From Microbulbifer thermotolerans (lineage in GTDB: Bacteria; Pseudomonadota; Gammaproteobacteria; Pseudomonadales; Cellvibrionaceae), in assembly GCF_900112305.1 (NCBI RefSeq), contig NZ_FOKT01000006.1, forward strand, positions 62,001-126,000: a stretch of DNA of 64,000 nt. Reading direction: 5' to 3'. A program made the translations under genes and the position numbers. Positions 48,898-62,757 of this stretch are shown piece after piece (position 1 is the stretch's first letter; every line of letters starts with the position of its first letter). The notes beneath the pieces are model-generated. The model saw only the letters and a program-made list of their open reading frames with translations. It was not told the DNA's origin and did not search any database.

Positions 48898-49008
48898 CAA
48901 ACGGCTCCACGCAGACGCCCAAACCTACGTTCTTTTTGTGGAATTCGCTGCGCTCATTTTACCACAAAAAGCTCTCCGGCTTGGGCGCTGGTGAGCCGGA
49001 CGTTATGC
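48892..49008 (+). other. attC site of cassette 1
   Basis: R'' ending TAAC (48892-48898), R' GTTATGC (49002-49008), 117 bp. Outer arms ACGGCTC and GAGCCGG pair, and an inner TTTTTGTGG/CCACAAAAA pairing is clear. Confidence 0.85.
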
Positions 49009-49017
49009 ATACGAACG

Positions 49018-49476: not shown

Positions 49477-49590
49477 CAAACAGCGGCAGAGCGACAGCCA
49501 ACGCTACGCACCTTTTGCGTTACTCGCTAGCGCTCAAACATTAACACAAAAGGAGCTCCGCGCTGGCTGCGCCTGCGCTGAGCGTTAGGG
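49471..49590 (+). other. attC site of cassette 2
   Basis: R'' GCATAAC (49471-49477), R' GTTAGGG (49584-49590), 120 bp. GCGGCAGAGCGACAGCCA pairs with TGGCTGCGCCTGCGC-type sequence. It is nearly identical to the attC at 56329-56447. Confidence 0.88.
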
Positions 49591-49596
49591 TTCAAA

Positions 49597-50019
49597 ATGA
49601 GCGAATTTCGTAATTCTTTTCGGAATGTTGCTGAAGAATTTATGGCTTCGCTGTCTGTGGCAGCCGAAATCAAATCCGAAAAGGGCCGAGATGTCCTTCG
49701 TATCCCGCCGCAATCGGAAAATGGGTTTCAAGTTGAATTGGAATGCACGGAATACGGGGTATATCCGTCAGCTGAAGGCTGGCACGGTGGTTGTTGGGAC
49801 GTAACAGTTTGGAAGCCTAAAGACCTAGAGGCTAGTCTGCGGGAATTCTTGAACTCTATAGTTACTGATGCAGAGCTGGAAATATGTTACTCCGGGTCAA
49901 AGCCCTATAAGTGGATACTTCGTCATACTTTTGAAGGGCAGCGAGTAGCTGATGAAACCGGGCTTATCTTCTTTAATTGGTTTGGTCGTCGTTCAATTGA
50001 AATTAAATGCAATGCGTAG
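49597..50019 (+). CDS. Cassette 3: hypothetical protein
   Basis: 140-residue soluble protein, not recognised. Starts MSEFRNSFRNVAEEF. A hydrophilic alpha/beta pattern with several Trp (WHGGCWDVTVWKP) and no membrane segment. It starts seven bases after the attC core without a clear Shine-Dalgarno, as is common in cassettes. Confidence 0.7.
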   Translation: MSEFRNSFRNVAEEFMASLSVAAEIKSEKGRDVLRIPPQSENGFQVELECTEYGVYPSAEGWHGGCWDVTVWKPKDLEASLREFLNSIVTDAELEICYSGSKPYKWILRHTFEGQRVADETGLIFFNWFGRRSIEIKCNA

Positions 50020-50027
50020 CCATCCCA

Positions 50028-50118
50028 CCCTAACAAGTTGCTGTTGTCGCAGCGCAAAGGGGCACGCTGCTGGGACGCCTACGCTGACGCTCCGACGCCC
50101 CAAAGCAAGGGGTTACAA
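50028..50118 (+). other. attC site of cassette 3
   Basis: R'' CCCTAAC (50028-50034), R' GTTACAA (50112-50118), 91 bp. AAGTTGCTGTTGTC start as in the attC at 53345. R' departs from consensus at position 4. Confidence 0.75.
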
Positions 50119-50134
50119 GGCATAAGGAGAGAGC

Positions 50135-50647
50135 GTGGGAATTACTGTACATTTTGAGGGAAAATTAAAAGACGAAGCCTCCTATAATGCAATCTGCTCA
50201 AATGCTGAGGCGTTTGCTAAAGAAATGGAATGGCCTTTCGCGCTAATCTCTGAGCAAGAGATAAAGCTCGAAAGAACCCGCAATGAAGAAGATTGGGACT
50301 ACATAGGCCCAGTTAAAGGTATTGAGATCTTTCCACATGAAGCTTGTGAGCCATTCCGCTTGGAGTTCGATAGGGATCTCTATATTCAAGAGTTTACAAA
50401 AACTCAATTTGCTCCCGTCGAAATACACGTTCTATTAGTCGACTTCCTTCGGTCAAATATTGAATTGTTCGAGTCCATTGAAATAATCGATGAAGGTGAG
50501 TACTTCGAAACAAATGATATCGAAGTACTCAAGAAGCACCTGCAAGCATGCAACTCTCAACTCGAGCAATATCTGGAGCAACCAGATAAATACTACGGTC
50601 CAGTAAAATTAGAAAACGGCCGTATAGTCGACCTTATGGAACAGTAA
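50135..50647 (+). CDS. Cassette 4: acidic hypothetical protein
   Basis: 170-residue acidic soluble protein, family not recognised; MGITVHFEGKLKDEASY start, two-domain alpha/beta pattern. GTG start with a good AAGGAGAG ribosome-binding site seven bases before it, so this cassette carries its own translation signal. Confidence 0.75.
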   Translation: MGITVHFEGKLKDEASYNAICSNAEAFAKEMEWPFALISEQEIKLERTRNEEDWDYIGPVKGIEIFPHEACEPFRLEFDRDLYIQEFTKTQFAPVEIHVLLVDFLRSNIELFESIEIIDEGEYFETNDIEVLKKHLQACNSQLEQYLEQPDKYYGPVKLENGRIVDLMEQ

Positions 50648-50651
50648 TGCC

Positions 50652-50750
50652 TTGTAACAAGTTACTCAAGTTCACTCTGGCCGCAAAAGGCTCGGCCTCC
50701 GCGGGACAGCCTACACTGCGTTTCGGCTGCCCCTTAGCAAAGCGTTATAG
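50652..50750 (+). other. attC site of cassette 4
   Basis: R'' TTGTAAC (50652-50658), R' GTTATAG (50744-50750), 99 bp with GCCGCAAAAGGCTCGGC-type inner pairing. Confidence 0.75.
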
Positions 50751-50760
50751 GGCGTAAAGG

Positions 50761-51195
50761 ATGAGTCCTCAGGTTCTAAAAGCTGGAGTATTTTCTGCGA
50801 TTCTTGTTTTGGCCCTCTTCGGTATTTTCACGTTAATAGCTGTGCGTTCAGGATCAGATCTAGACCAGTCACAGTTAAGAGTCACACCGGTAGTTGAGGC
50901 TAAATTTGATTGCCAGCTAATTGAAGCTGAGGTTGAAAGCTTACGAAAGGTTTGTTCGGGCGGTTTCTGAGAAACCTCAAGCGATTGCAGAATCGTAGGG
51001 CAAGCGTGTTCGTCTATTCCGACAGATAAGGCCCAACAAATGGAGGATAAGTTTTCTTTTCTTCTTGAGATGTCAGATCAGCTAAGTTGCAATACTGGAT
51101 TCTTAATATGTGAATTTGTGGCGCCTAGCTGTAAAAATGGGCAATGTGCTCTGGTTAGGTCTGTCAATGAGCCTCCGATTCGACCAGAGATGTAG
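50761..51195 (+). pseudogene. Cassette 5: Cys-containing membrane-anchored protein, interrupted by in-frame TGA
   Basis: Reading 50761-51195 as one frame gives 144 sense codons with a single TGA at 50968-50970. The first 69 residues have a membrane helix (VFSAILVLALFGIFTLIAV). The rest continues in the same frame with regularly spaced cysteines (SSDCRIVGQACS, LSCNTGFLICEF, APSCKNGQC) and ends right before the attC. A restart ATG at 51040 could give a 51-residue protein. Nonsense mutation is the simplest reading; UGA readthrough cannot be excluded. Confidence 0.65.
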
Positions 51196-51199
51196 AGCC

Positions 51200-51292
51200 C
51201 TATAACAATCGGCTGTTATCGCCCCTGCGGGGCTGGGACGGCCTTTCCGCCGCTTCGCGGCTACAAGTTCGCCCTAAAGCCGGGCGTTATAC
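51200..51292 (+). other. attC site of cassette 5
   Basis: R'' CTATAAC (51200-51206), R' GTTATAC (51286-51292), 93 bp. CGGCTGTTATCGCCCC and GCCCTAAAGCCG arms pair in part. Confidence 0.75.
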
Positions 51293-51399
51293 GTACAGAG
51301 AATCGGTCACTTTCGAAAAATTGATCAAAAAGGTATCCTCTCTGGGCCAAGACACCGCCTGGTGAAATAAAGGACAGAAAATCAAAGGAAGGAATCATT

Positions 51400-51717
51400 A
51401 TGCCAAAAATCTATGAGTACCTTGGTATCGTCTTGTTCTTCTATAGCAATGAACACGAGCCCATTCATATCCATGGTAAGTTCAATGGATGAGAAACCAA
51501 GGCCGAGATCCATTTCTTTTCTGGGCGAATTCATAAGGTAACGCTTAAGGATAAGGGACCAGGTTTAGAGCCCAAAAAACGAAAGGAGTTCGAAGAATTT
51601 GTTAAAGCAAACGCTTCTGAGATCGTAGATAAGTGAGTGGATTACTTTGTAAAGAAAAAGCACATTGCTCCCAAGACGATCACTCAAAAGGTGCGAAATG
51701 TCAGAACTATTGGTTAA
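51400..51717 (+). pseudogene. Cassette 6a: DUF4160 protein with two in-frame TGA codons
   Basis: ATG 51400 with GGAAGGAA upstream opens a 105-codon frame matching DUF4160: MPKIYEYLGIVLFFYSNEHEPIHIHGKF, then KAEIHFFSGRIHKV and FEEFVKANASEIVDK. TGA codons fall at codon 31 (51490-51492) and codon 79 (51634-51636). The second stands where relatives have Trp (DK-W-VDYF from memory), so TGG to TGA is likely. The last 20 bp overlap the DUF2442 start. DUF4160/DUF2442 pairs are common and often suggested to be toxin-antitoxin-like. Confidence 0.75.
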
Positions 51718-51952
51718 ATCCGCCAAGCATAAAATTGGTCACATACTGGAAATAAAATTTAATGATGGCCATGTTGCTTGTGTCGATTTTGCTCCATTTA
51801 TATTTTCAAATGGGCATCCTGATTATGAGCCGTATAAATCGGTAGAAAATTTTCTTGATTTTGAGATAGTGGATGGGAACTTAAATTGGGATGATTACAC
51901 GATGATTTTTCCAGTAGAAGACCTTTATAATAATCGGCTTATTAAACGCTGA
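51698..51952 (+). CDS. Cassette 6b: DUF2442 domain protein
   Basis: 84 residues: MSELLVKSAKHKIGHILEIKF, NDGHVACVDFAPF, then NLNWDDYTMIFPVEDLYNN, the core of DUF2442. Intact, unlike its DUF4160 partner. The ATG at 51698 lies inside the 3' end of that gene. If the pair is toxin-antitoxin-like, survival of only this member would fit loss of the other; that is inference. Confidence 0.82.
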   Translation: MSELLVKSAKHKIGHILEIKFNDGHVACVDFAPFIFSNGHPDYEPYKSVENFLDFEIVDGNLNWDDYTMIFPVEDLYNNRLIKR

Positions 51953-51974
51953 TTAAAACTAAGATCGCTGGAAA

Positions 51975-52050
51975 GTATAACCAGTAGCGTCAGTCGGATC
52001 GGTTTGTCGTGCTGCGCCCGCCAAACCGCCCGCTGCGCATGGCGTTATGC
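51975..52050 (+). other. attC site of cassette 6
   Basis: R'' GTATAAC (51975-51981), R' GTTATGC (52044-52050), 76 bp. GGCGTTATGC right end and CGGTTTGTCG/CGCCAAACCG pairing. Confidence 0.75.
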
Positions 52051-52071
52051 TAAATCAGGTCATGGACAAAT

Positions 52072-52689
52072 ATGAACATATGGGAAGAAGATAAATTACT
52101 GGTTTTCATCGCTTTTGTGATACCCGGTTTCGTGGCGATTAAAGCATACGAACTATTTTTTCCATCTCAAAGAATGGATAGTTCAAAGCAGGTCGTGGAT
52201 GCAGTTGCGTATAGTTGCTTTAATTATTCAGTTTTGATCTGGCCCATCTATTTAGTCGAGCACTACGATCTACAGAGTAAATATCCATTTGCATATGGAG
52301 CTTTCTATTTTTTCGTATTCTTTATCGCACCAGTTTTTTGGGTCTACCTTTGGAAGAAAATACGGCAAACTGAATATTTTCAAAAATTAGTTCCTCATCC
52401 CACGCAAAAGCCTTGGGATTTTGTGTTCGGACAGCGAAAGGCTTATTGGGTAATTGTTAACCTAAAGAACGGTGAGAAAGTAGCAGGAATGTACGGCCCA
52501 AATTCTTTCGCATCAAGTGCACCGGCCGACGAACAAATATACCTTGAACAATTGTGGGTGCTCAACGAAGATGACGGGTTTGAGCGCCCAGCAGAACAAA
52601 CTGCGGGCGTTATCATCTTGTCCTCAGAGATTAAATCTATTGAATTAATCCATAGCGGAGAGCAGCTGGATGACAGAGAAGAAGACTGA
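52072..52689 (+). CDS. Cassette 7a: DUF6338-like membrane protein
   Basis: 205 residues. Three hydrophobic segments (LLVFIAFVIPGFVAIKAYELF, SCFNYSVLIWPIYLV, YGAFYFFVFFIAPVFWVYL) are followed by a cytoplasmic domain with RKAYWVIVNLKNGEKVAGMYGPNSFASS and QIYLEQLWVLNEDDGF. This matches the DUF6338 family from memory. Its end overlaps the start of a 46-residue gene. Family function unknown; often seen in defence-like or accessory islands. Confidence 0.72.
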   Translation: MNIWEEDKLLVFIAFVIPGFVAIKAYELFFPSQRMDSSKQVVDAVAYSCFNYSVLIWPIYLVEHYDLQSKYPFAYGAFYFFVFFIAPVFWVYLWKKIRQTEYFQKLVPHPTQKPWDFVFGQRKAYWVIVNLKNGEKVAGMYGPNSFASSAPADEQIYLEQLWVLNEDDGFERPAEQTAGVIILSSEIKSIELIHSGEQLDDREED

Positions 52690-52810
52690 AAATAGAGGTT
52701 ATGTGCCATTAAAAAAGGGATATAAGCCCGGTGATAGCCCTGCGACAGCTGGCCACAAGCCTGAAAAAAGTGAACTGGCAAAACCGGTTAATCCGCCAAA
52801 GAAAAAATAG
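52670..52810 (+). CDS. Cassette 7b: small Lys/Pro-rich protein paired with DUF6338
   Basis: 46 residues: MTEKKTENRGYVPLKKGYKP and a KPEKSELAKPVNPPKKK tail. It overlaps the DUF6338 gene by 20 bp. Small proteins with RGYxPxxKGYxP motifs next to DUF6338 genes occur elsewhere (recollection), so this is probably a true partner. The stop sits in the attC R'' core. Confidence 0.65.
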   Translation: MTEKKTENRGYVPLKKGYKPGDSPATAGHKPEKSELAKPVNPPKKK

Positions 52811-52923
52811 CATAACAATACGTGCCAGAGGGACCTACGTTGCGGCGCTTGATTTTGTGCTGGTCGCTACGCTTGCACAAAAGCCAATCGCCTCCACTCC
52901 GGCCCCTGCACTTGGCGTTATGC
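52810..52923 (+). other. attC site of cassette 7
   Basis: R'' GCATAAC (52810-52816), R' GTTATGC (52917-52923), 114 bp; TTTTGTGC/GCACAAAA inner pairing. Confidence 0.85.
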
Positions 52924-52933
52924 GTTCTAAATA

Positions 52934-53350
52934 ATGAGCATTGAGAATAAGCTGAAAGAACGGGTTTCCTATCATTCGGGTGTAAAGGCCGAAGATGTAT
53001 CATCTGAGATGTATTTAGAAGGTGATCTTGGCATAACCGGAGATGATGCGTTCGAATTAATTGAAGACATTCAGAAACTGTTTGATCTTGATTTGACTGA
53101 ATTTGATTTCAGTCTTCACTTTGTCCCAGAGGCAGGTGGAATCAAAAATTCAGAGTATGGCTATTATCCTGTTTCTGTTGGTCATCTAATTGAGGTTTGC
53201 AATAGAAAATCTTGGTTCTTACCAGATAGAGATCTGGAGAATCACCAGAAGTTTAAAAGAGCTTTACTAGTACAAAATGTACTAGCTATTGGTGTCTTTA
53301 CTTGTGTGTTAATGGCAATCTTATTGGTATTGTCCAATGAATGCGCATAA
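52934..53350 (+). CDS. Cassette 8: DUF1493 (acyl-carrier-like) protein with C-terminal membrane helix
   Basis: 138 residues. The first ~70 (VSYHSGVKAEDVSSEMYLEGDLGITGDDAFELIEDIQKLFDLDLTEFDF) follow the DUF1493 pattern, related to acyl carrier proteins (LGITGDDA in place of the phosphopantetheine DSL region). A single hydrophobic helix near the end (VLAIGVFTCVLMAILLVLS) anchors it in the membrane. There is no Ser for phosphopantetheine at the usual place, so carrier function is doubtful. Confidence 0.75.
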   Translation: MSIENKLKERVSYHSGVKAEDVSSEMYLEGDLGITGDDAFELIEDIQKLFDLDLTEFDFSLHFVPEAGGIKNSEYGYYPVSVGHLIEVCNRKSWFLPDRDLENHQKFKRALLVQNVLAIGVFTCVLMAILLVLSNECA

Positions 53351-53416
53351 CAAGTTGCTGTTGTCGGACGCACCTGCGCTGGCGCTCCGGTACGCCGCAA
53401 ATCCATGGCGTTAACT
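53345..53416 (+). other. attC site of cassette 8
   Basis: R'' GCATAAC (53345-53351), R' GTTAACT (53410-53416), 72 bp, short-type site with GCGCTGGCGC loop. Confidence 0.8.
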
Positions 53417-53420
53417 GCCT

Positions 53421-53837
53421 ATGAAAGTTTGGAAGAAAATTGCTATCTCTTTCGGTATTTTGGTTATTGGCGTTCCGCTAGCAATCGCAGGACTATTCAT
53501 TTATGCAACCAGCGACATGTGCGGGAACGAAGTTTACACTGAGGTTATGTCGCCCAATAAAGAGCATAAAGTAGTCGTGTTTCAAAGGGATTGTGGAGCA
53601 ACGACTGGTTTCAGCACCCAGGTTTCAATAATCGTATCTGACGATGAGCTCGAAAATGAGGGTGGCAATATATACATTATCAAAGGTCACCCAAAGGATG
53701 TCTCTCCTCAAGTAAGGTGGGTTTCTAACAAAGAACTGAGAATAGAGAGAAGTTTGAACGGTTCTGAACATAAAGCTGAGTCTAGCTGGGGTATTCTGAA
53801 CAAGGTTAAGGTTACCTATGGCGCAGGCGGCAGTTAA
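53421..53837 (+). CDS. Cassette 9: membrane-anchored protein of unknown function
   Basis: 138 residues; one N-terminal helix (IAISFGILVIGVPLAIAGLFIY) and a periplasmic beta-rich domain starting at DMCGNEVYTEVMSPNKEHKVVVFQRDCGATTGFSTQVSI. Two conserved Cys suggest a disulfide. This resembles a widespread small family often numbered DUF5412 (recollection, unsure). ATG lies four bases after the attC core. Confidence 0.7.
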   Translation: MKVWKKIAISFGILVIGVPLAIAGLFIYATSDMCGNEVYTEVMSPNKEHKVVVFQRDCGATTGFSTQVSIIVSDDELENEGGNIYIIKGHPKDVSPQVRWVSNKELRIERSLNGSEHKAESSWGILNKVKVTYGAGGS

Positions 53838-53891
53838 AAAGTTTGTCAAAAGGACACTCCTGACGTCGCGCCTTTTACAAAAGCGTTACAT
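53831..53891 (+). other. Degenerate attC site of cassette 9
   Basis: R' GTTACAT (53885-53891) is clear. The left core reads AGTTAAA instead of NNNTAAC, so the site is decayed. 61 bp. Confidence 0.5.
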
Positions 53892-53906
53892 GATGGTAGC
53901 TAAACA

Positions 53907-54581
53907 TTGAAACTTGTATTTCTACCAGGAATGGATGGAACGGGATTACTCTTCAATAAGCTAATCCTGAATATCCCAAAAGAAATAGATAGAGAGGTTG
54001 TTTGCCTCAACGAAATACAGGGTGTGAGCTATCGCCAGCAAGCTGAGCAGATAGCCGCAAAAATCGGATCGTCAAGTGTTGTAGTAGTCGCTGAATCATA
54101 TTCTGGAAAAATTGCGTATGAATTATGCAATATCCTTGGCAGCAGAGTTTCGAAGGTAGTTTTTATCGCTAGCTTTGTTTCCTGCCCTGGAAGGCTAGCA
54201 AAGCTTGCTGCTGTCCTTCCGGAGTGTTTTCTTAAGCCTAATCTGTTCCCAAACTGGCTTATGAAAATGCTATGTTTTGATGGCCGTGGTAATAGGGCGC
54301 TAATGGATCAAGTTCGCCAAGCTATTGCTCAGGTTGGGCCAAACGTCTTAAAGCAACGCTTATTGAATATTGCTGAACTTGATGAGCCAAAAGGTCATCA
54401 ATCAACAACAGCCGTGTATATCCGGCCAACAAATGATCACTTGGTTTCGTATGATGCAATCAAAGTTTTGAGTAATATTTATCCCCAGTTAAGTATCGAA
54501 TCTGTGGAAGGCGGACACTTCATTGCTCAAACGGCCCCGAAGTCATGTGCGAGAGTCATAGTCCGTGCCACAACCACGTAA
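53907..54581 (+). CDS. Cassette 10: alpha/beta hydrolase
   Basis: 224 residues. LPGMDGTGLLFNKL gives the oxyanion-hole region; the nucleophile elbow is VVVVAESYSGKIAYEL (Ser64, AxSxS-type instead of GxSxG). The acid is probably in RPTNDHLV and the base in GGHFIAQ. It resembles small pimeloyl-carrier esterase/lipase-like hydrolases. TTG start; substrate unknown. It ends in the R'' core of an attC that is broken by an IS remnant. Confidence 0.8.
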   Translation: MKLVFLPGMDGTGLLFNKLILNIPKEIDREVVCLNEIQGVSYRQQAEQIAAKIGSSSVVVVAESYSGKIAYELCNILGSRVSKVVFIASFVSCPGRLAKLAAVLPECFLKPNLFPNWLMKMLCFDGRGNRALMDQVRQAIAQVGPNVLKQRLLNIAELDEPKGHQSTTAVYIRPTNDHLVSYDAIKVLSNIYPQLSIESVEGGHFIAQTAPKSCARVIVRATTT

Positions 54582-54600
54582 CAAGCGACTGTGGTTCAAG
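54576..54600 (+). other. Left part of an attC site, truncated by an IS110-like remnant
   Basis: ACGTAAC followed by AAGCGACTGTGG looks like the left half of an attC site. The right core is missing; IS110-like sequence begins within about 15 bp. Confidence 0.6.
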
Positions 54601-54830
54601 CGCTAGCGAAAATATTTAGTACGCCCACTCCGCCATCTCGTACCATTGCATTAAGAATCGTCAAAAACTTCCTCATTGCGGCCGTCAGTGCGACCTTTTT
54701 ATGTTTTCCCTGTTTGACTAGGTGTCGATAGATTCCGCCGATTATTGGGTTACACCGGACCGCGCTATGTGTCGCCATATCGCGCTATGTGTCGCCATAT
54801 ACAGCGTAGTACGGACACTGTTGCGACTGA
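54596..54830 (-). pseudogene. IS110-family transposase, C-terminal remnant
   Basis: On the minus strand NSVRTTLYMATHSAVR, CNPIIGGIYRHLVKQGK, KKVALTAAMRKFLTILNAMVRDG is the characteristic C-terminal end of IS110/IS1111-type transposases. A 20-bp tandem duplication inside it shifts the frame. It is fused upstream to an IS4-like transposase and abuts a truncated attC; IS1111-attC elements are known to target such sites. Confidence 0.75.
54761..54800 (+). repeat. Exact 20-bp tandem duplication
   Basis: cgcgctatgtgtcgccatat occurs twice head to tail (54761-54780, 54781-54800). Removing one copy restores the IS110 reading frame. Confidence 0.95.
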
Positions 54831-55800
54831 CCCGGCTGTAGCTATCAATCACTTCTTCCGCAGTCAGACTGATGTTCGTCGAGAGCAGTAATCGTTCGGC
54901 CTTCGAGTCTTGTTTTTTGCTGTCCCAGTATTCGCACCAGACCGCGCGTACCTGCCGACCACTTAAGAACCGGGCCATGAGCACCTTGCTGCGATAGCGG
55001 ACCTTCTGCTAGCGCCCATGCAGCCAAAGGGTGACTTCGGTTCTCTTCAGGTGCGCTGGGGTATAAGGATCTCCGTATTTCCTGGGGCGACCGCGTTGCC
55101 CGGGCTTTCTCGGTGGCGGGCTATCGCATAGCCGGGTATCTATACGCACTTGACCGATCACCGCGAAACCATAACCACACAGGGTTTCTATCAAACTTTG
55201 CCGCATGTACCAGCAGTCCATCAGTACCCGAACCGGCTTGCCCAAAAATCGCTGGTATATGGCGCGAATCAGCACCTGCGCCGCTCTCAACTTGCCGGTG
55301 TTACCGGCGCTTGGGCTCAGCCGGTTCAACAGCGGTATGGCCACAAACTGCCGGGCTCCGCGCTTGACTACCATCTCCAGGCTGACAAAACATTGGCCTC
55401 GTACGAATTTCGCCAAATTGGTTTTGTTGCCGTGCTGGTGGTGTATCTGGCTGGCCGGTGCCTTCTTTGATGCCCTTAGAGTCAGGGTGTCGTCAATGGC
55501 CAGATGGATGACTTCCTCACCATGTAAGGACAACGCTAACCGCAAAAACTGATTCACCAGCGCGAGCCATGACCACTTTCCCTTCTGTAACCACTTGTAG
55601 TAACTAGTCCAGTGGTTGCGCATATCCAACATCAGGTAGGCCTCGGTTACAAAGCCTGCGGGTGTCAGCATGGCGCCGATCAGCAGTTCGATAAAAGTGC
55701 GCACCGACCTCGCAGGTAGACTTTGTGCTAGAAATGTAATCCAATTAAGCAGTTCGCGAGGGATTTTGGCCCATCTCTTCGCGTTCATTGCGGCCTCCAG
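54831..55800 (-). pseudogene. IS4/IS701-like DDE transposase remnant with an amber stop
   Basis: The 259-residue frame from ATG 55788 shows a DDE-type domain: HLAIDDTLTLRASKKAP with the first Asp and VLMDCWYMRQSLIETL with the second. It stops at TAG (55009-55011). The same frame then continues (QKVRYRSKVLMARFLSG, ERLLLSTNISLTAEEVIDSYSR) up to about 54835, where IS110 sequence begins; the third acidic residue region is lost. Family placement (IS4 or IS701) is by motif only. Confidence 0.7.
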
Positions 55801-55832
55801 ATCCAGTAGTGCAACTTACACATTTCTGGAGT

Positions 55833-55882
55833 CCGCGCCCTTTACGCCATGCCTTCGGCATAGCAAGGCGTAAAGGGCGCGG
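55833..55882 (+). repeat. Perfect 16-bp inverted repeat with nested hairpin
   Basis: CCGCGCCCTTTACGCC (55833-55848) pairs perfectly with GGCGTAAAGGGCGCGG (55867-55882), with an inner ATGCC/GGCAT hairpin. It lies between the IS remnant and cassette 11. It may be an IS end, a terminator or the arms of a lost attC. Confidence 0.8.
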
Positions 55883-55953
55883 CAAAAATTTTCTGCCGCA
55901 ATGTCAACTATTTTTTGTCTGTTTTTTGCTCCGCAAAAGTCAAAACTCTAGCT

Positions 55954-56328
55954 ATGAAATACAAAAATTTAAAGTCAATGTCTCACAACTTCAGTCACTC
56001 ATTCGTGAGTCTAATGAATTATATTGATGATGGTTACGTTGTTGATGATTTGATTGTCATGGCACGGGAAGCCAAGGGTGAAACTATTTCGATTCAATGG
56101 ATTCCGAGAATAAACTACGACTCATCGAATTTTTCAAAAAGAGTTCGAAAGTCCATAGCGATAAACCAGGATTGGCTGCCCAAGCACTTAGCAAGCCACG
56201 GCGTCGATGCAAGTATTATCACGGAAATGCGTACCGATATATTTCGTACTCCATCACATCAAATATGGGTTAAAGCCTATTTGAAAGACAATAGAGGAAA
56301 GGAGTATGAAGCGTATGTCAGCCGCTAG
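55954..56328 (+). CDS. Cassette 11: hypothetical protein
   Basis: 124 residues, soluble, family not recognised: MKYKNLKSMSHNFSHSFVSLMNYIDDGYVVDDL, then IQWIPRI and LPKHLASHGVDASI. ATG 55954 is chosen; an in-frame start at 55915 lies in unrelated sequence. It is the first gene to the right of the IS remnants. Confidence 0.65.
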   Translation: MKYKNLKSMSHNFSHSFVSLMNYIDDGYVVDDLIVMAREAKGETISIQWIPRINYDSSNFSKRVRKSIAINQDWLPKHLASHGVDASIITEMRTDIFRTPSHQIWVKAYLKDNRGKEYEAYVSR

Positions 56329-56447
56329 GCATAAAAATCAGCGGCAGAGCGACAGCCAACGCTACGCACCTTTTGTGCTGCTCGCTGGCGCTCAAACATT
56401 AACACAAAAGTGCTCCTCGCTGGCTGCGCCTGCGCTGGGCGTTATGC
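56329..56447 (+). other. attC site of cassette 11
   Basis: Left core GCATAAA (56329-56335, last base changed), R' GTTATGC (56441-56447), 119 bp. Nearly identical to the attC at 49471-49590. Confidence 0.82.
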
Positions 56448-56471
56448 ATTATTAGAGAAAATTGAAAAAAT

Positions 56472-56762
56472 ATGGAAGCAATTGTTTACGTAGTTTTAGA
56501 CGCAGTCATTACAGGCTTTATCGTATTTCTGGCTGGCAAATTAACTGCGGTGAAAATTGATTTTAAAGACGCTGTGATTTGCGTGGGTATGTCGTCGGTG
56601 CTTGGTTTCATTCCAGGTATTGGCTGGTTGCTTTCAATAATCGCTTTTTTCTATTTATTAAAAAAGTGCACGGAATCGGATATTTGGCCAGACCTTATTT
56701 TACTAGTGTTAGTTAGTAAGTTGATTAGTGTTATAGCATTGGCTGGCCTTGGCGGTATATAA
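56472..56762 (+). CDS. Cassette 12: small membrane protein
   Basis: 96 residues with about three hydrophobic helices (VLDAVITGFIVFLAGKLTA, ICVGMSSVLGFIPGIGWLLSIIAFFYLL, LILLVLVSKLISVIALAGLGG). A common type of integron cassette product. No known family recognised. Confidence 0.7.
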   Translation: MEAIVYVVLDAVITGFIVFLAGKLTAVKIDFKDAVICVGMSSVLGFIPGIGWLLSIIAFFYLLKKCTESDIWPDLILLVLVSKLISVIALAGLGGI

Positions 56763-56764
56763 AT

Positions 56765-56879
56765 GCATAACCAACTCAGCCAGGCAGGACATCCGTTCTG
56801 TCGTTGATTTATGCAGTTGGCGCTACGCTACCGCAAAAACCAACAACTCCACTGTGGCCCATGCTGCAGGGCGTTATAA
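56765..56879 (+). other. attC site of cassette 12
   Basis: R'' GCATAAC (56765-56771), R' GTTATAA (56873-56879), 115 bp. Confidence 0.8.
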
Positions 56880-56884
56880 ATCGA

Positions 56885-57109
56885 ATGAGTGAAAAGAGAG
56901 TGAATAGGCTATCTGAGGAAGAAATCGCAAAGCTCAATCCGAATGAAAAATACATCAGAGATTACTCAGCAGTTTCACCATCGTTTCTGTTATGGCTCTC
57001 TGTCGATCTACTTGTACTCGCTTTCGCTCTTCAAGAGTTAGGTGTGTTGGATCGTCTTCTTTTTGAGGTTAAGGAGATATCTAGTTCAGGTAGGTTCGGA
57101 GGCCGGTGA
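56885..57109 (+). CDS. Cassette 13: small protein with one membrane helix
   Basis: 74 residues: MSEKRVNRLSEEEIAKLNPNEKYIRDYS, then a hydrophobic segment (FLLWLSVDLLVLAFALQEL) and a glycine/serine tail. ATG 56885, six bases after attC. Function unknown. Confidence 0.65.
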   Translation: MSEKRVNRLSEEEIAKLNPNEKYIRDYSAVSPSFLLWLSVDLLVLAFALQELGVLDRLLFEVKEISSSGRFGGR

Positions 57110-57113
57110 AAAT

Positions 57114-57246
57114 TTATAACAAGGCCAGACAGTTTGCTACAGGCCTTCGGCCCTCCGTGGGACGGCTTACCTTGTGCGCGTTTTGCGCATCCCAGTTTCG
57201 CGCAAAAGGCGCACAAGTTAAGCTTCCCCTGCTGGCGGCGTTAGGG
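57114..57246 (+). other. attC site of cassette 13
   Basis: R'' TTATAAC (57114-57120), R' GTTAGGG (57240-57246), 133 bp. Its left half matches the truncated attC at 62386. Confidence 0.82.
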
Positions 57247-57253
57247 CACATAT

Positions 57254-57937
57254 ATGATCAAACTTATATTCATTATCATCACTGCTCTCGGTCTAAGTTA
57301 CATTTTATTGTCGAGCAACAGTTTTGCGAGTAATACGAAAAAAGAGGAAGTTAAGTTGGCTGACAATACAGGTGAAATTAGTGCAGGTGACTGGAAACAT
57401 CTATATTTCTTTGGTATCACCAAACACCCAATTAGCGAAGTTGGCTTAAATCAACAAATGGCACAAGGTCTAATTCGGATGGTAAAGGTTCAGTCATCAA
57501 TTAGCACGGGAGCCCTGATAGATCCAAAATACATGTTTAATGCAAAAGGTCTGACCCCTTGGTTGGCCATGCATACTTTACTGCACTTAAAACAACCTAG
57601 TTTGCTTACAGACGTCGCCAAAGGTTCTGGTTCGGCTCATGTTCCTAATACATTCCTTGAAGATATATTTAAAAATCATAATAACTGGCCTAAAGTGCTG
57701 CTAGATGAACATGATATTGAATTACAGGGGTTCAACGTTTTTATTCTCCCATTTATAGTCCACAAAAATACCAAATATGACCTAACATTTAATCAATCTA
57801 TGAAAGCGCCAGATGGTAGTCTTGAGATATTTGGTGTTAGTGAGTTCGATGAAAAACACCCAGAAAAAGTTCTTTCAATTATTCAGAGAGAAATAGAGTT
57901 TATTAAAGAAAAACGACCAGATGTTTTTGGTCATTAG
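57254..57937 (+). CDS. Cassette 14: exported or membrane-anchored protein of unknown function
   Basis: 227 residues. The N-terminal hydrophobic stretch (LIFIIITALGLSYILLSSNSFA) is a signal peptide or anchor. The rest is hydrophilic with no recognised motif; GDWKHLYFFGITKHPISEVG is the most distinctive part. AT-rich. Confidence 0.68.
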   Translation: MIKLIFIIITALGLSYILLSSNSFASNTKKEEVKLADNTGEISAGDWKHLYFFGITKHPISEVGLNQQMAQGLIRMVKVQSSISTGALIDPKYMFNAKGLTPWLAMHTLLHLKQPSLLTDVAKGSGSAHVPNTFLEDIFKNHNNWPKVLLDEHDIELQGFNVFILPFIVHKNTKYDLTFNQSMKAPDGSLEIFGVSEFDEKHPEKVLSIIQREIEFIKEKRPDVFGH

Positions 57938-57958
57938 TAGAGTGTTTACCATGGCCAG

Positions 57959-58096
57959 CCCTAACAAATTGCTGCAGTTCGTTCGGGCGCTTCGCGTCTC
58001 CACCGGACAGTCAAAGCTGTGCGCCTTTTGTGTATTTGCTTCGCGTGTCACACAAAAGTCACCCAACTTTTCCTGCCTCTGAGCAAGGAGTTATGT
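57959..58096 (+). other. attC site of cassette 14
   Basis: R'' CCCTAAC (57959-57965), R' GTTATGT (58090-58096), 138 bp, the longest site here; TTTTGTGT/ACACAAAA inner pairing. Confidence 0.8.
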
Positions 58097-58103
58097 GAAA
58101 TAA

Positions 58104-58460
58104 ATGAAAGACAACTATTTGGTAATCACTGCAGATGTTGAAGATGATGGGACCGTAGGTTTGAACGGAATCGTTTCAGCACGAGGGTTTTCAGGTACGG
58201 GCGAAGCTTGGTTTAACGTATCTCAAGTCATTGAGTTTTCAGAGCAGTTAGAGCACTTTGCTAAAACCACTGAAAACCCTCCAGAAATCTTTGGGGGTAA
58301 TTTGGATGGCGAGGGGAGTTTGATAAACAAACTATTATCTCTTCGGTTCTACTCACTTTCAAATTATCGCGTAGGTGTTCAAGTTGAGTTCGCAGATCAT
58401 CCCTATACGGGCTGCCGTACTGAGGAAATCGCTTGTGTTAAAGTTGACTCAAGCCCGTGA
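58104..58460 (+). CDS. Cassette 15: hypothetical protein
   Basis: 118-residue soluble beta-rich protein: MKDNYLVITADVEDDGTVGLNG, GFSGTGEAWFNVSQVIEF, then YRVGVQVEFADHPY. The GFSGxGEAWFN pattern recurs in small cassette-type proteins (recollection). ATG seven bases after attC. Function unknown. Confidence 0.68.
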   Translation: MKDNYLVITADVEDDGTVGLNGIVSARGFSGTGEAWFNVSQVIEFSEQLEHFAKTTENPPEIFGGNLDGEGSLINKLLSLRFYSLSNYRVGVQVEFADHPYTGCRTEEIACVKVDSSP

Positions 58461-58545
58461 TGCAGGCTTTAATTGAATTTTGTAGTCAGTTAAAAAAGCT
58501 TTTAACTAATGATTTGCACGAGGCCAAGCTTTATTGCTAGACCTC

Positions 58546-58605
58546 GCATAACAATCACAGGCAGTCGACGCGAAAAAGCCCGCGCAACTGCTACAAGTGT
58601 TAACT
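58546..58605 (+). other. attC site of cassette 15
   Basis: R'' GCATAAC (58546-58552), R' GTTAACT (58599-58605), 60 bp, short type. Confidence 0.75.
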
Positions 58606-58617
58606 CTATGAGGCCGC

Positions 58618-59139
58618 ATGGAAGAAATATTTAACTGGGTAAGACCAATACTTAGCGGGTTAGCGGGCGGACTCTTTGTCTGGGCGTTAGTCGCATTCAC
58701 TAAAGATCAAGGAAAGCATGAAGGCAGTATAAGACATCTACATTACGGGAAGCCTTTCAAGATATTTGCTTTGCTGCTAATTCCTTTTTCCGTTTTCGTG
58801 GTCTATGCAGTTTCCCAATCATATAAAGGTCAAGAAATACCGGCGTTTCTTGTTGCATTGGGTTTTGTTTCGGGTGCCATATTTTTCCCTTACCAAGCTT
58901 TCTTCGTAAGGTTTAGCTACGATGACGAATTCGTTTATTATAAAAGCCCCTTGGTGGGAACAAAGAAAGAGCCGTGGGGTAATCTCATAGATGTAGGTTA
59001 CTCTAAACTACTCCAAGCTGACTTCATTGTGGTTGATGGCATTGGGAAAATCTGGTGTTCGAATATGCTTAATGGGTATGGTGAGCTTGGTGAGTTTCTT
59101 GAGAAGAAGGTTCAAGAGCTATATCCAGAGCAGAGTTAA
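58618..59139 (+). CDS. Cassette 16: membrane protein with PH-like C-terminal part
   Basis: 173 residues. Helices at about 10-26, 49-66 and 75-92, then a beta-rich region (RFSYDDEFVYYKSPLVGTKKEPWGNLIDVGY) resembling bacterial PH-like domains. Its stop codon is part of a TTAA at which a foldback element inserted, so the site of insertion is the R'' core of its own attC. Confidence 0.7.
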   Translation: MEEIFNWVRPILSGLAGGLFVWALVAFTKDQGKHEGSIRHLHYGKPFKIFALLLIPFSVFVVYAVSQSYKGQEIPAFLVALGFVSGAIFFPYQAFFVRFSYDDEFVYYKSPLVGTKKEPWGNLIDVGYSKLLQADFIVVDGIGKIWCSNMLNGYGELGEFLEKKVQELYPEQS

Positions 59140-59352
59140 GGAACCTCTGATTAAGTCACTTTCTGGTGGCAGAGGCGCTTCGGGGGCGGATGTGAAGCTC
59201 AGGTGATAGGACGGGCATTTCGAAACCGTCGGATACAGGGATGTATCCGTCGGAGCTACAAGGAAGTACTCGTGCGTTTTCGAAATGCCCGTCCTATTGC
59301 CTGAGCGCCCCGGAAGCTACCATAGTGTCCACGCGAATTAATCAGAGGTTCC
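59140..59352 (+). mobile_element. Foldback/MITE-like element, copy A
   Basis: 213 bp with terminal inverted repeats GGAACCTCTGATTAA / TTAATCAGAGGTTCC, flanked by TTAA on both sides (59136-59139 and 59353-59356). Inside is a long stem (GCTCAGG to TTTCGAAA on the left, its complement on the right; 27 of 29 pair) capped by CGGATACAGGGATGTATCCG (59230-59249). No protein gene. It probably moves with a transposase supplied elsewhere. Confidence 0.85.
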
Positions 59353-59453
59353 TTAACAAGGCGCTGTTGTCGGACCGGCCTCCCGCTGGAAGGCGCTCCA
59401 AACCAGCCGCAAATCGCGAATAAGGTAAGCCGCTCCTACCGTGGGAGTTACAT
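59351..59453 (+). other. attC site of cassette 16, split by foldback element copy A
   Basis: R' is GTTACAT (59447-59453). The left core now reads CCTTAAC; before insertion it would have been AGTTAAC joined to the cassette 16 stop. 103 bp. AAGGCGCTGTTGTCGGACC start. Confidence 0.7.
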
Positions 59454-59506
59454 GCCTAGGAGAGTTTTCAACATTGGATAATGATCAGTTTTACCCTAAG
59501 GAAATT

Positions 59507-60274
59507 ATGAATATAACGTTAAGATCAATTGGAGTTTTCGGTGTCCTATTATTTGGAGTCTTGTTCTTTGTAACCTTTGTTTCTCCTGAGAGAATCGAGC
59601 ATTCAGCCAAGGGTTTTGTAAAATATCAAATTGAGAAAGAAATCCGTGAAAAGCATCAAGTTTTGACAGAATCTGATGTCGCTACCAAGGCTTTGAATAT
59701 TGCTAGTAGGCTGGGGTTTGAAAAGGAAAAAATTCAAGAGAATATCGACAATAAGCTACCCGAGAAGATTGCGAGTATAGTTGCCGCAATGTGCGGTTAT
59801 GATTGTGAAAAAAAGAAAATTTTGGCGCAATCTATAACGTCTGGCTATTTAGAGCGTATTAAAAGTATTGAGATCGCTCAAAACACGTTAGGTGATATTG
59901 TAAAGAGTAAATATGTTGAAATTGTGGGTAACTTAAAAGTAGACCTTCGGATATTTCTTGGCACTAATTTTGTAATGTTTTTGATTCTTTTGGGAATATC
60001 TTTTGCTAAGCCGAAAGCTGTTGTCCACCTGTTTTTACCAGGAATGCTTTTGCTATTATCAACGATAATATCTTCATCTATATATATTTGGGGTCAGGAT
60101 TGGTTTTATACAATTTTGTATAATGATTATATGGGGTTTGGGTATCTGGCCTATATATCGGTGATTTTTGCTGTACTATTAGATATTGTATTTAATAAAG
60201 CAAGGATCACGAGTGAAATTTTAAATGGCATTTCTAATGCGATCGGTTCTGCCTTCTCGGTGGTGCCGTGCTAA
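59507..60274 (+). CDS. Cassette 17: multi-pass membrane protein with coiled region
   Basis: 255 residues. An N-terminal helix (SIGVFGVLLFGVLFFVTFV), then ~110 residues of charged helical sequence (KFVKYQIEKEIREKHQ-type), then three or four C-terminal helices (LGTNFVMFLILLGISFA, HLFLPGMLLLLSTIISSSIYIW, LAYISVIFAVLLDIVF). ATG 59507 has AAGGAAATT upstream. Unknown function. It is bracketed by two copies of the foldback element. Confidence 0.7.
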   Translation: MNITLRSIGVFGVLLFGVLFFVTFVSPERIEHSAKGFVKYQIEKEIREKHQVLTESDVATKALNIASRLGFEKEKIQENIDNKLPEKIASIVAAMCGYDCEKKKILAQSITSGYLERIKSIEIAQNTLGDIVKSKYVEIVGNLKVDLRIFLGTNFVMFLILLGISFAKPKAVVHLFLPGMLLLLSTIISSSIYIWGQDWFYTILYNDYMGFGYLAYISVIFAVLLDIVFNKARITSEILNGISNAIGSAFSVVPC

Positions 60275-60284
60275 TTGTATTTAA

Positions 60285-60496
60285 GGAACCTCTGATTAAG
60301 TCACTTTCTGGTAGCAGATGCGCTTCGGGGTGGATGTGAAACTCAGGTGATAGGACGGATATTTCGAAACCGTCGGATACAGGGATGTATCCGTCGGAGC
60401 TACAGGGAAGTACTCGTGCGTTTTCGAAATATCCGTCTTGCTGCCTGAGCGCCCCGGAAACTACCATAGTGTTCACGCGAATTAATCAGAGATTCC
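60285..60496 (+). mobile_element. Foldback/MITE-like element, copy B
   Basis: 212 bp, closely similar to copy A in the same orientation. Flanked by TTAA (60281-60284) and TTTA. Terminal repeat right end has one change (CAGAGATTCC). Stem bases GGATAT/ATATCC replace GGGCAT/ATGCCC of copy A: two compensatory pairs. Confidence 0.85.
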
Positions 60497-60722
60497 TTTA
60501 CATAGGTTATTCCCGAGCTGGAATACAACAAAATCAAGAAATACGGCATTGTATATTAATGTGGCATACTCCAATTCTTAATGGAGCCTTGGTATAAGAA
60601 AATGTACTGATTTTATCTTGAGGGGCTACTATAGATACTAACCATAGAAAACCCGGAAAATCGCCTGCACAAGTGTATCCGATGACTCTGTGTTCAACCC
60701 ATGGCAGCAATGGGAAGTTCGG
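60497..60722 (+). other. Non-coding, decayed stretch
   Basis: 225 bp after copy B with no gene or attC core on either strand; probably degraded cassette sequence. Confidence 0.4.
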
Positions 60723-61070
60723 ATGGATAAGGCAGAACTGAAAAGTTTCTCTGAGCCGGATGAAGTGCGTGAGTTTCCCAAGGGACGGGTGGAGTTGCTG
60801 AAGATAGGCGGTGGGATTGTCGGCCGCGCTGTCTTTGAGCCGGGCTGGCGTTGATCGGAATCAGTGCGGCCAATTTTAAATACACAGAGTTGTGATGCTC
60901 CGCATTTTCAATATCAAATATCCGGAAGATTGAGGGTATTAACGGACGACGGTACAGAAATCGATTGTAAACCCGGTGATGTTCTGTTGCTGCCCACGGG
61001 ACACGATGCCTGGGTGGTTGGGGATGAGCCTGTGGTGACAAAACTGGACACCCACCAATTGAAAACGTGA
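60723..61070 (+). pseudogene. Cupin-domain protein with in-frame TGA
   Basis: A 115-codon frame with one TGA at 60852-60854 (codon 44). It matches a small cupin family: FPKGRVELLKIGGGIVGRAVFEPGWR before it; then SESVRPILNTQSCDAPHFQYQ, SGRLRVLTDDGTEIDCKPGDVLLLPTGHDAWVVGDEP. Relatives have PGWRWSE here, so TGA stands for a Trp TGG. Without readthrough only the downstream half from 60864 might be made. The GC content is higher than in neighbouring cassettes. No attC is adjacent. Confidence 0.72.
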
Positions 61071-61215
61071 TGGAAAAGCTAGGATAAAATGTCTTGCGAA
61101 GGTTGGCAGGGTGGTGGACCCTGGCACTATCGCTCTCGATGGCTATCTACGTGCTAACAGTGTTTACAATAGTTGAAGGAACAAAGATTTAGATTGGTAG
61201 CGAAAAGCGGTTGTT

Positions 61216-61377
61216 GTGAGCGTTTCATTTGGGGCCGGCATTGCTACTGGGGTATTGGTTGGTACGCTTATAGCGATGACGTCTGTTGGGTTTATTGTTG
61301 GCGTTTTTGTGGGAGGTGCAGCCGCCGTTGGAGTGGGCTATGGAGTCAAAGAAATTGTTGGGTGGATATATGACTAG
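61216..61377 (+). CDS. Possible small Gly/Val-rich hydrophobic protein
   Basis: 53 residues from a GTG: VSFGAGIATGVLVGTLIAMTS, VGFIVGVFVGGAAAVGVGYGV, then KEIVGWIYD. Very glycine-rich, hydrophobic, with GxxxG-like spacing, as in small membrane peptides, channel-like proteins or bacteriocins. No strong ribosome-binding site. The overlapping frame on the same strand is Cys/Trp-rich nonsense. It ends eight bases before the next ATG. Confidence 0.4.
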   Translation: MSVSFGAGIATGVLVGTLIAMTSVGFIVGVFVGGAAAVGVGYGVKEIVGWIYD

Positions 61378-61385
61378 TGGTAATC

Positions 61386-61748
61386 ATGAATAATCATTCT
61401 TTGATGCTATTTTTTGTCGTCATAGCCCTCGGAGGTGTGGCAAGCATGATGCTCGGTCTTCTGCTTCTCCGCCTAACGCTAACTCGTCGCCTTAAGAAAA
61501 AACTGCAGGCAACCGGAGACTACTGGGAGAGTGGTACCATCGATTTTGGTTTTATAAATACCGCAATATTTGCCTGGGCTTGCACAATGCGTCGCGTTCA
61601 GAAGCTTGAAAGGTTTCAGTTAATCTACCCGGGGCTGGATGTCAGGTCATATGCAAATGGGTTTGAAAGAGTTGCAGCCTATGGCACTGTCGGTGGGTTA
61701 TTGGCTGCTTCCCTGGGTGTTGTCTTCTTTTTCATTTTTAAGTTATAG
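61386..61748 (+). CDS. Hypothetical two-helix membrane protein
   Basis: 120 residues, N-terminal helix (LMLFFVVIALGGVASMMLGLLLLRL), a basic segment, a soluble central part, and a C-terminal helix (GTVGGLLAASLGVVFFFIFKL). Not recognised. ATG 61386 eight bases after the preceding small frame, so the two may be translated together. It lies in the degenerate part of the array with no attC directly after it. Confidence 0.6.
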   Translation: MNNHSLMLFFVVIALGGVASMMLGLLLLRLTLTRRLKKKLQATGDYWESGTIDFGFINTAIFAWACTMRRVQKLERFQLIYPGLDVRSYANGFERVAAYGTVGGLLAASLGVVFFFIFKL

Positions 61749-61993
61749 CCATAGAAAAATTGAACTCTCGATAATTTAAAAGTAAGTTTATGGGGTCGTA
61801 CATATTTAGTCTTTTTTTCGCAGCTTGCTATACGGGGAAATAGAGCCGACGTTCCGAGCGGAGTTGCGCCAAACCGTTTTTTTGTGGCGCAGTAGTCCTT
61901 CGCGGAATCTCGCGATAGTGTTTTTCAAGGAAAGGAAAAACTTTAGAAAGTGAATGGCGTTTTAAAAGTGTCCATGAATAGCGTGAATCTAGC
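61749..61993 (+). other. Non-coding, decayed stretch before attC
   Basis: 245 bp with no convincing gene. A minus-strand frame over it overlaps the attC and shows no known family. Confidence 0.4.
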
Positions 61994-62071
61994 ACCTGAC
62001 AAGGCCAGTCAGAGGGACACAAAACTCGCCGCTTTGCTGCGGTTTTCGTGCTCCTGCTGGCAGTGTTATGC
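61994..62071 (+). other. attC site before the last cassette
   Basis: Left core ACCTGAC (61994-62000, T to G change), R' GTTATGC (62065-62071), 78 bp. CAAGGCCAGTCAGAGGGACAC and TGCTCCTGCTGGC arms pair in part. Confidence 0.65.
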
Positions 62072-62087
62072 ATCTTAGTGACTTGAA

Positions 62088-62378
62088 GTGAATAATGTAG
62101 AAATGGAAGAAAAGAAGAAATTCCCTAAGGAAATCGCAATTGCACTGGCTGTCGTCGGTGTGCTAGTTTCACTGGCTCCAGTTGCCATCATTCAAAATGA
62201 GGCAGCAGTTTTACCCGTAATATTTGGCCTTTTAATGAACTTCGTTCTTATACCTTCTATATTTCTACTGTTTGGCGGTATCCAGAAACTACGTGATAAG
62301 CAGTTCAACTTGTGGAACGCATACTACCTTGGGCTCTTTGTTGCCATAGTTTTGGCGGTACAAAAGCTGGCTGCGTAG
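62088..62378 (+). CDS. Last cassette: small membrane protein
   Basis: 96 residues (GTG 62088, or ATG 62103). A charged start EEKKKFPKE, then three hydrophobic helices (AIALAVVGVLVSLAPVAI, VIFGLLMNFVLIPSIFLLFGG, YYLGLFVAIVLAVQKLAA). Unknown function. Confidence 0.65.
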   Translation: MNNVEMEEKKKFPKEIAIALAVVGVLVSLAPVAIIQNEAAVLPVIFGLLMNFVLIPSIFLLFGGIQKLRDKQFNLWNAYYLGLFVAIVLAVQKLAA

Positions 62379-62385
62379 TGGCTAT

Positions 62386-62458
62386 GCATAACAAGGCCGG
62401 GCCGTTTGCTCCAGGTCTTTGTCCCTTCGCGGGATATCTTATCTTGTGCGCATATTGC
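62386..62458 (+). other. Truncated attC, right end of the recognisable integron
   Basis: R'' GCATAAC (62386-62392) followed by AAGGCCGGGCCGTTTGCTCC, like the left half of the attC at 57114. It then breaks off near GCGCATATTGCG where IS256-like sequence starts. No R' core. Confidence 0.65.
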
Positions 62459-62757
62459 GGGGTAGTGAATCATCCTTTCTGTTAGTTTACCCGCGCGTGA
62501 TCTAGGAGCGGGCCACGGTTAGACTGATAGTCGCCAAACATTCAGTCTAAAAGGAGATAACCGTGACCCACGATAATGAGAATACAGCAGCAATATCAGC
62601 TATGGCTGAAATCCTTTCTGATCAAGGATTTGATGGGCTGGCCTCGGCTTTCCTGGTTCTGCTCAACGAGCTGATGTTGATAGAATGAGATCAGTACCCG
62701 GGAGCGCCCTTCTGCGAGCGTTCATAGAGTCGTTGGGGCTATGTCGTACAAGATTCG
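62459..62757 (+). pseudogene. IS256-family transposase, N-terminal remnant
   Basis: GTG 62563 with AAGGAGATAACC upstream begins MTHDNENTAAISAMAEILSD, QGFDGLASAFLVLLNE, the N-terminal pattern of IS256/Mutator transposases. A TGA at 62686-62688 stands where relatives have Arg. The same frame continues DQYPGAPFCERS up to a TAG (Glu in relatives) before losing similarity. GGGTAGTGAATCATCC near 62459 may be the IS end. The catalytic part is gone. Confidence 0.7.

What the first reader, a model, noticed from the sequence alone, without database searches (positions are those of the whole stretch)
59205..60450. Compensatory base-pair changes between two copies of the foldback stem
Copy A pairs GGGCAT with ATGCCC; copy B pairs GGATAT with ATATCC at the same positions. 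Two independent base pairs have changed on both sides while pairing is kept, and the loop CGGATACAGGGATGTATCCG is unchanged. This is the signature of a selected structure, either in RNA or in single-stranded DNA, and not of passive decay. It could be an ncRNA, an RNA-protecting element or a transposition substrate.
Basis: seen in the sequence. Interest (0 to 1): 0.68.

Follow-up and report, generated by a model that had tools for sequence, protein, structure and literature searches.

The report
Mobile twin-CsrA-site RNA hairpin
The two foldback stems are copies of a small transposon that carries a very widespread folded RNA element with two hairpin loops matching the binding site of the bacterial regulator CsrA, so a mobile piece of DNA may have multiplied a regulator-binding RNA through this genome.

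Summary
In detail: copy A pairs GGGCAT/ATGCCC and copy B GGATAT/ATATCC, with loop 1 unchanged. Both are copies of a ~213-bp MITE (15-bp TIR GGAACCTCTGATTAA, 4-bp YTAR target duplication, so IS5-like) present in well over 100 copies in this genome, a relative of Microbulbifer. Its centre is not private to the MITE. A covariance model of the 71-position core finds it in 118 of 144 genomes of the family, 144 of 390 of the order and 68 of 369 of the class, often many copies per genome. It is a long stem ending in two hairpins, each with an A-N-G-G-A-N loop closed by C-G: the CsrA/RsmA consensus CANGGANG, twice. In 97 cores from other loci, 23 of 24 pairs changed on both sides with 98.9% of cells paired. 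In the outer arms, which the model does not cover, G-U outnumbers A-C 163:45, so the GGA-strand RNA is what is selected. The nearest named family is Rfam TwoAYGGAY (RF01731), already proposed to bind CsrA; this genome's copies fail its model and its Y position. I conclude it is a new, mobile variant of a CsrA-site RNA. CsrA binding, transcription and sponge action are inferred. Copies inside this genome decay almost neutrally.

The parts
59136..59356 (+). Copy A: whole MITE with its 4-bp target duplication (TTAA 59136-59139 and 59353-59356)
   Evidence: full-length match, TIRs at both ends, identical TTAA on both sides
59140..59154 (+). Copy A 5' terminal inverted repeat GGAACCTCTGATTAA
59338..59352 (-). 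Copy A 3' terminal inverted repeat
59197..59306 (+). Copy A foldback: P1 outer stem and everything inside it
   Evidence: (I1)
59217..59286 (+). Copy A 70-nt core (P1 end, P2, P3), the unit shared with other genomes
   Evidence: position by correspondence with the R1 match to copy B
59236..59243 (+). Copy A hairpin 1 loop and closing pair, CAGGGATG (fits CANGGANG)
   Evidence: consensus read
59259..59266 (+). Copy A hairpin 2 loop and closing pair, CAAGGAAG (fits CANGGANG)
59204..59205 (+). Copy A 5' side of the conserved tandem U-G/G-U wobble (partners 59298-59299)
60281..60500 (+). Copy B: whole MITE with imperfect target duplication (TTAA left, TTTA right)
60285..60299 (+). Copy B 5' terminal inverted repeat
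60482..60496 (-). Copy B 3' terminal inverted repeat (1 mismatch)
60361..60430 (+). Copy B 70-nt core
   Evidence: R1 match G000:C13:122361-122430, 91.1 bits
60380..60387 (+). Copy B hairpin 1 loop and closing pair, CAGGGATG
60403..60410 (+). Copy B hairpin 2 loop and closing pair, CAGGGAAG

Best explanation
A structured RNA element with twin CsrA/RsmA-type sites, carried here as the cargo of an IS5-like MITE. When the GGA strand is transcribed, the arms form a long stem topped by two hairpins whose ANGGAN hexaloops, about 23 nt apart, present two CANGGANG sites that one CsrA dimer could clamp. Shown: the fold, its covariation, the strand on which it is selected, the conserved loops, the dispersal, the TIR and TSD. 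Inferred: transcription, CsrA binding, and that each transcribed copy withdraws CsrA from its targets (sponge) rather than regulating the gene beside it. In this genome a transposase acting in trans on the GGAACCTCTGATTAA ends multiplied one version.
For: Core alignment of 21 sequences, mostly from other genomes: C A n G G A n G invariant in both hairpins while stems change. 175 distinct cores from 139 loci: hairpin 2 loop is ANGGAN in 172, hairpin 1 in 126 (158 if the first N may be missing). A2: 23 of 24 pairs with two-sided changes, 98.9% of cells paired against 76.5% in shuffles. Arms outside the model: G-U 163, A-C 45; re-paired arms as control 405 to 353; in 90 dissimilar arms 86 to 33. 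A tandem U-G/G-U wobble sits 12-13 pairs outside the core in many genomes and in 85 of 108 local copies. At one orthologous intergenic site in 8 species 90% of core columns are invariant, 71% of arm columns, 38% of the rest. Local copies vary more at the N loop positions (20 of 188) than at A/GG/A (9 of 376) in a subset not chosen by the loop. The consensuses RUACARGGAUGU and (A/U)CANGGANG(U/A) were read in PMC6849547. The genome has one ordinary csrA. MITE: 39 of 50 evaluable copies have identical 4-mers at both ends against 9.2 in shuffles, and only 1 has identical 5-mers.
Against: No transcript or binding data. Orientation to tandem neighbour genes is even (36 sense, 43 antisense of 191) and antisense copies are no worse kept (31 of 40 with both sites, against 25 of 36), so a cis role in the neighbour's mRNA is not supported. 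No promoter signal near the element. Inside the core stems G-U is rare and hardly exceeds A-C (29 to 18), which fits arm copying at DNA level as well. In this genome copies decay nearly neutrally. Of 108 local copies 22 keep only one CANGGANG and 4 keep none.
Confidence: 0.62

Rival explanations
1. An ordinary neutral MITE: matching arm changes come from DNA-level arm homogenisation (template switching or conversion in a quasi-palindrome) and from several source copies, with no function.
For: Local copies: G-U 93, A-C 63, other 69; few G-U inside the core stems family-wide (29 of about 4,100 cells); subfamilies share the same paired states; compensatory changes are also reported as common in REPIN hairpins (passage in PMC3116915).
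Against: Does not explain the strand bias G-U 163 to A-C 45 in arms elsewhere, the invariant loops, or core conservation at an orthologous site in 8 species.
Confidence: 0.18
2. The hairpins are a DNA transposition substrate, as in REP/REPIN elements moved by RAYT (Y1) transposases.
For: Dispersed, extragenic, often in inverted pairs 170-450 bp apart; Y1_Tnp genes in 45 of 48 genus genomes.
Against: No core match within the 30 loci around Y1_Tnp genes; genomes G004, G012 and G013 have no Y1_Tnp match yet carry many cores; in this genome ends and duplications are of DDE type; wobble bias is an RNA sign.
Confidence: 0.07
3. A 3'-end RNA stability or termination element between genes, whose loops bind something other than CsrA.
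For: Convergent sites enriched over divergent (70 to 10 of 191, background gaps 36 to 46).
Against: No T-run downstream in most (27 of 190 have one); orientation-neutral; two conserved CANGGANG loops are not needed for a barrier. Convergent enrichment also follows if insertions near promoters are lost.
Confidence: 0.13

Closest known systems
Rfam RF01731 TwoAYGGAY (Weinberg 2010, PMC2864571; proposed CsrA-binding RNA in PMC4333381)
   Same: Long outer stem enclosing two hairpins with C-ANGGAN-G loops; one relative (L313) has an R1 element that scores 45.6 on RF01731, above its cut-off of 43, and a second at 41.3; same class of bacteria
   Different: This genome's copies give no RF01731 match, have purine rather than pyrimidine at loop position 2, and ride in a MITE; R1-type and RF01731-type copies tend to be in different genomes (G081, G089, G116)
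CsrB/CsrC, RsmX/Y/Z sponge RNAs (general account in passages of PMC4333381)
   Same: GGA hairpin loops that can sequester CsrA dimers
   Different: Those are sRNA genes with many sites each; this is a two-site element repeated tens to over a hundred times
IS5-type MITEs (YTAR target duplication recalled from IS classification)
   Same: TIR, 4-bp YTAR duplication, no gene, high copy number
   Different: Cargo is a conserved structured RNA that also exists outside the MITE
REPIN / RAYT elements (PMC3116915)
   Same: Extragenic hairpin repeats with compensatory changes
   Different: No Y1 transposase association found; three-way junction with fixed loops; RNA-strand bias

Membership tests
CsrA/RsmA binding site pair | ANGGAN hexaloop closed by C-G, (A/U)CANGGANG(U/A), on one strand | tested here: met
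   loop 2 172 of 175, loop 1 126 of 175 (158 with the N optional); closing C-G 159 and 171; local copies: 81 of 108 with exactly two sites, 1 with three
CsrA/RsmA binding site pair | Host encodes CsrA | tested here: met
CsrA/RsmA binding site pair | The RNA is made and binds CsrA | not testable with these tools
   No transcripts or binding assay available
Rfam RF01731 TwoAYGGAY | Score at or above the gathering score 43 | tested here: not met
   L001 (copy A and its surroundings) no match at E up to 1; this genome 0 matches among 18 scored candidates. Met by a relative, L313 1062-1189, 45.6 bits
Rfam RF01731 TwoAYGGAY | Both loops AYGGAY (pyrimidine at position 2) | tested here: not met
   Local loop 1 position 2: G 86, A 16, T 1 of 103; loop 2: G 100, A 6 of 106
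Rfam RF01731 TwoAYGGAY | Outer stem enclosing two adjacent hairpins | tested here: met
IS5-type MITE | Terminal inverted repeats | tested here: met
IS5-type MITE | 4-bp YTAR target duplication | tested here: met
   39 of 50 evaluable (58 of 108 full copies not evaluated), 35 of them YTAR
IS5-type MITE | Parent IS with the same ends in the genome | tested here: inconclusive
   DDE_Tnp_1 fragments at contig ends next to GGAACCTCTGATCAA, 1 mismatch (L329, L330); no intact copy seen
REPIN / RAYT | Repeats flank a Y1 transposase gene | tested here: not met
   0 core matches in 30 Y1_Tnp loci (95,885 bases)

The most novel reading that the evidence does not exclude
A mobile CsrA sponge: twin-site elements spread as repeats through much of the Gammaproteobacteria, and transposon-driven changes in their number set how much free CsrA a cell has, so that copy number itself tunes a global regulator. 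In this genome an IS5-like transposase captured the element and raised its copy number above 100.
Probability: 0.25. Interest if true: 0.82.

Novelty: new variant of a known kind. Interest (0 to 1): 0.62.

Why it matters
CsrA is a global regulator of metabolism and behaviour. If a mobile repeat carries two good CsrA sites per copy, a genome's regulator budget can be rewired by transposition. It would also give the orphan Rfam family TwoAYGGAY a natural setting: a dispersed repeat rather than a single sRNA gene. The seven library searches made here listed no paper that describes such a repeat; subscription papers and preprints are not in that library.

Tried and rejected
Rfam at gathering scores over the window: only a tRNA. 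RAYT/REPIN link: rejected. Element promoter: none. Sense-orientation bias: none. One search was run with a wrong strand flip for '-' loci and is replaced. A simple 'DNA arm copying' reading was favoured after (few G-U in the core) and given up as the main reading after one search showed the strand bias in the arms. MicroRNA family hits below their cut-offs were taken as chance from long hairpins. Gene calls around elements are from a home-made codon score, not annotation. Most of the 110 local loci were picked by an 18-nt loop pattern with at most one mismatch, which biases loop and P2 conservation upward; the subset (36 of 40 BLAST-picked and 13 TIR-picked copies, 49 in all) was used to check this.

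Full report
What is there. The two foldback stems are copies A (59136-59356) and B (60281-60500) of one repeat. In the whole genome (G000, 3.92 Mb, 30 contigs) the loop word GGATACAGGGATGTATCC is found 167 times with up to 3 mismatches (reversed control 1) and the end AAGGAACCTCTGATTAA 311 times with up to 2 (control 0). From 110 loci fetched, 168 matches were found, 108 nearly full length. In 50 of these 108 both ends could be located strictly; 39 have the same 4-mer outside both ends (shuffled pairing 9.2), 35 of them YTAR, and only 1 an identical 5-mer. This is a MITE with an IS5-like duplication. Fragments of a DDE_Tnp_1 gene at contig ends beside GGAACCTCTGATCAA are candidates for the parent. 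Copy A sits on the stop codon of the ORF 58618-59139.

The compensatory changes. They are real and not limited to A and B: parsimony on 106 copies needs at least 30 Watson-Crick to Watson-Crick changes in the 29-pair stem. But within this genome one-sided changes are nearly balanced (G-U 93, A-C 63, other 69), so two copies alone do not prove selection. Core columns change less than the sub-terminal ones (P2 0.027, sub-terminal 5' side 0.108 in the 49-copy subset), though the 3' end (0.040) is close.

The core elsewhere. In 23 of 47 other genus genomes the BLAST search matched; nearly all those matches cover only the centre of the repeat, with other arms around it (one match, L053, is to the end region only). 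A covariance model R1 matched 118 of 144 family genomes, 28 of 32 genera, 144 of 390 order genomes and 68 of 369 class genomes; only 12-34 candidates per genome were scored in these, so copy numbers are lower bounds. With 150 scored, 28 chosen genomes had 3 to 101 matches. Named hosts include Microbulbifer, Cellvibrio and Marinimicrobium, and one Photobacterium contig (list cut at 69 stretches).

Anatomy. P1 arms, then P2 and P3, each with an ANGGAN loop closed by C-G. In A1 (21 rows) C-A-n-G-G-A-n-G is invariant in both and 12 of 24 pairs change on both sides. In A2 (97 matches, 95 distinct) it is 23 of 24, with 98.9% of cells paired; sliding the partners drops this to 54% or less. A2 is fitted to R1, which leans towards the structure; the arms are not.

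Which strand. In the arms beyond the model (offsets 1-20, leaving out 12-13) 175 distinct elements have 163 G-U and 45 A-C; 81 loci have more G-U and 9 more A-C; re-paired arms give 405 to 353; 90 dissimilar arms give 86 to 33. A G-U on this strand is an A-C on the other, so RNA of the GGA strand is what is kept. At offsets 12-13 a tandem U-G/G-U is frequent: 29 and 32 of 50 genus elements, 14 and 9 of 45 family, 28 and 31 of 93 named; 85 of 108 local copies have both. In the 90-arm subset the full tandem is in 10, the commonest combination but a minority. Against an RNA-only reading, inside core stems G-U is 29 and A-C 18.

Conservation in place. Between a SulP-like transporter gene and a universal-stress-like gene (names recalled from sequence, not tested) 8 species share the element: invariant columns are 90% of the core, 71% of the arms, 38% of the rest. 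The visible arm change runs G-C, G-U, A-U. Here the GGA strand is antisense to both genes.

Setting. Of 191 elements, 70 lie between convergent genes, 10 divergent, 36 tandem sense, 43 tandem antisense, 26 at an edge, 6 inside a call. Antisense ones are no worse kept. So a role in the neighbour's mRNA is not indicated; action in trans, or selection on source copies, fits better.

What it works like. The loops equal the CsrA/RsmE consensus (A/U)CANGGANG(U/A), and RUACARGGAUGU is matched exactly by ATACAGGGATGT in copies A and B; both consensuses were read as passages of PMC6849547. Two sites about 23 nt apart suit one dimer (spacing rule recalled). The genome has one csrA.

What it belongs to. 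RF01731 TwoAYGGAY has the same layout (alignment). A relative's R1 element at L313 1062-1189 scores 45.6 on it, over the cut-off of 43 (the R1 match there is). Local copies do not match it and have purine at loop position 2, so I do not file them in RF01731, but place them as a variant of the same kind. PMC4333381 (passages) had proposed CsrA binding for TwoAYGGAY; PMC2864571 (passage) lists it as a probable RNA, not cis-regulatory.

Literature seen: passages only of PMC4383904, PMC9788540, PMC6849547, PMC4333381, PMC2864571, PMC11701678, PMC7657543, PMC2699552 and PMC3116915; listings.

Noticed in passing
window 48000-62500: Run of short same-strand ORFs, mostly without known families, separated by imperfect attC-like repeats (D2-D5), after groEL; looks like an integron cassette array. 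An integrase was not looked for. Copy A seems to be inserted where one such repeat begins.
   Followed up: partly
window 55009-55788 (-): IS701-family transposase (NCBIfam NF049999, E 1.8e-85), matching profile positions 2-256 of 412, so probably truncated.
   Followed up: partly
G000:C14:16320-16880 (L113): Three MITE copies almost head to tail; many other copies abut older inverted partial copies.
   Followed up: no
L254 4273-4340: Core on a contig labelled Photobacterium pectinilyticum; transfer or contamination.
   Followed up: no
G081, G089, G116: Family genomes without R1 matches carry 8-18 RF01731 (TwoAYGGAY) matches each, so one type seems to replace the other.
   Followed up: partly
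G762:C1: At least nine cores with the same 70-bit score, a sign of a recent burst in a distant gammaproteobacterium.
   Followed up: no
L183 1501-2320: Five same-strand cores about 190 bp apart, a regular array.
   Followed up: no
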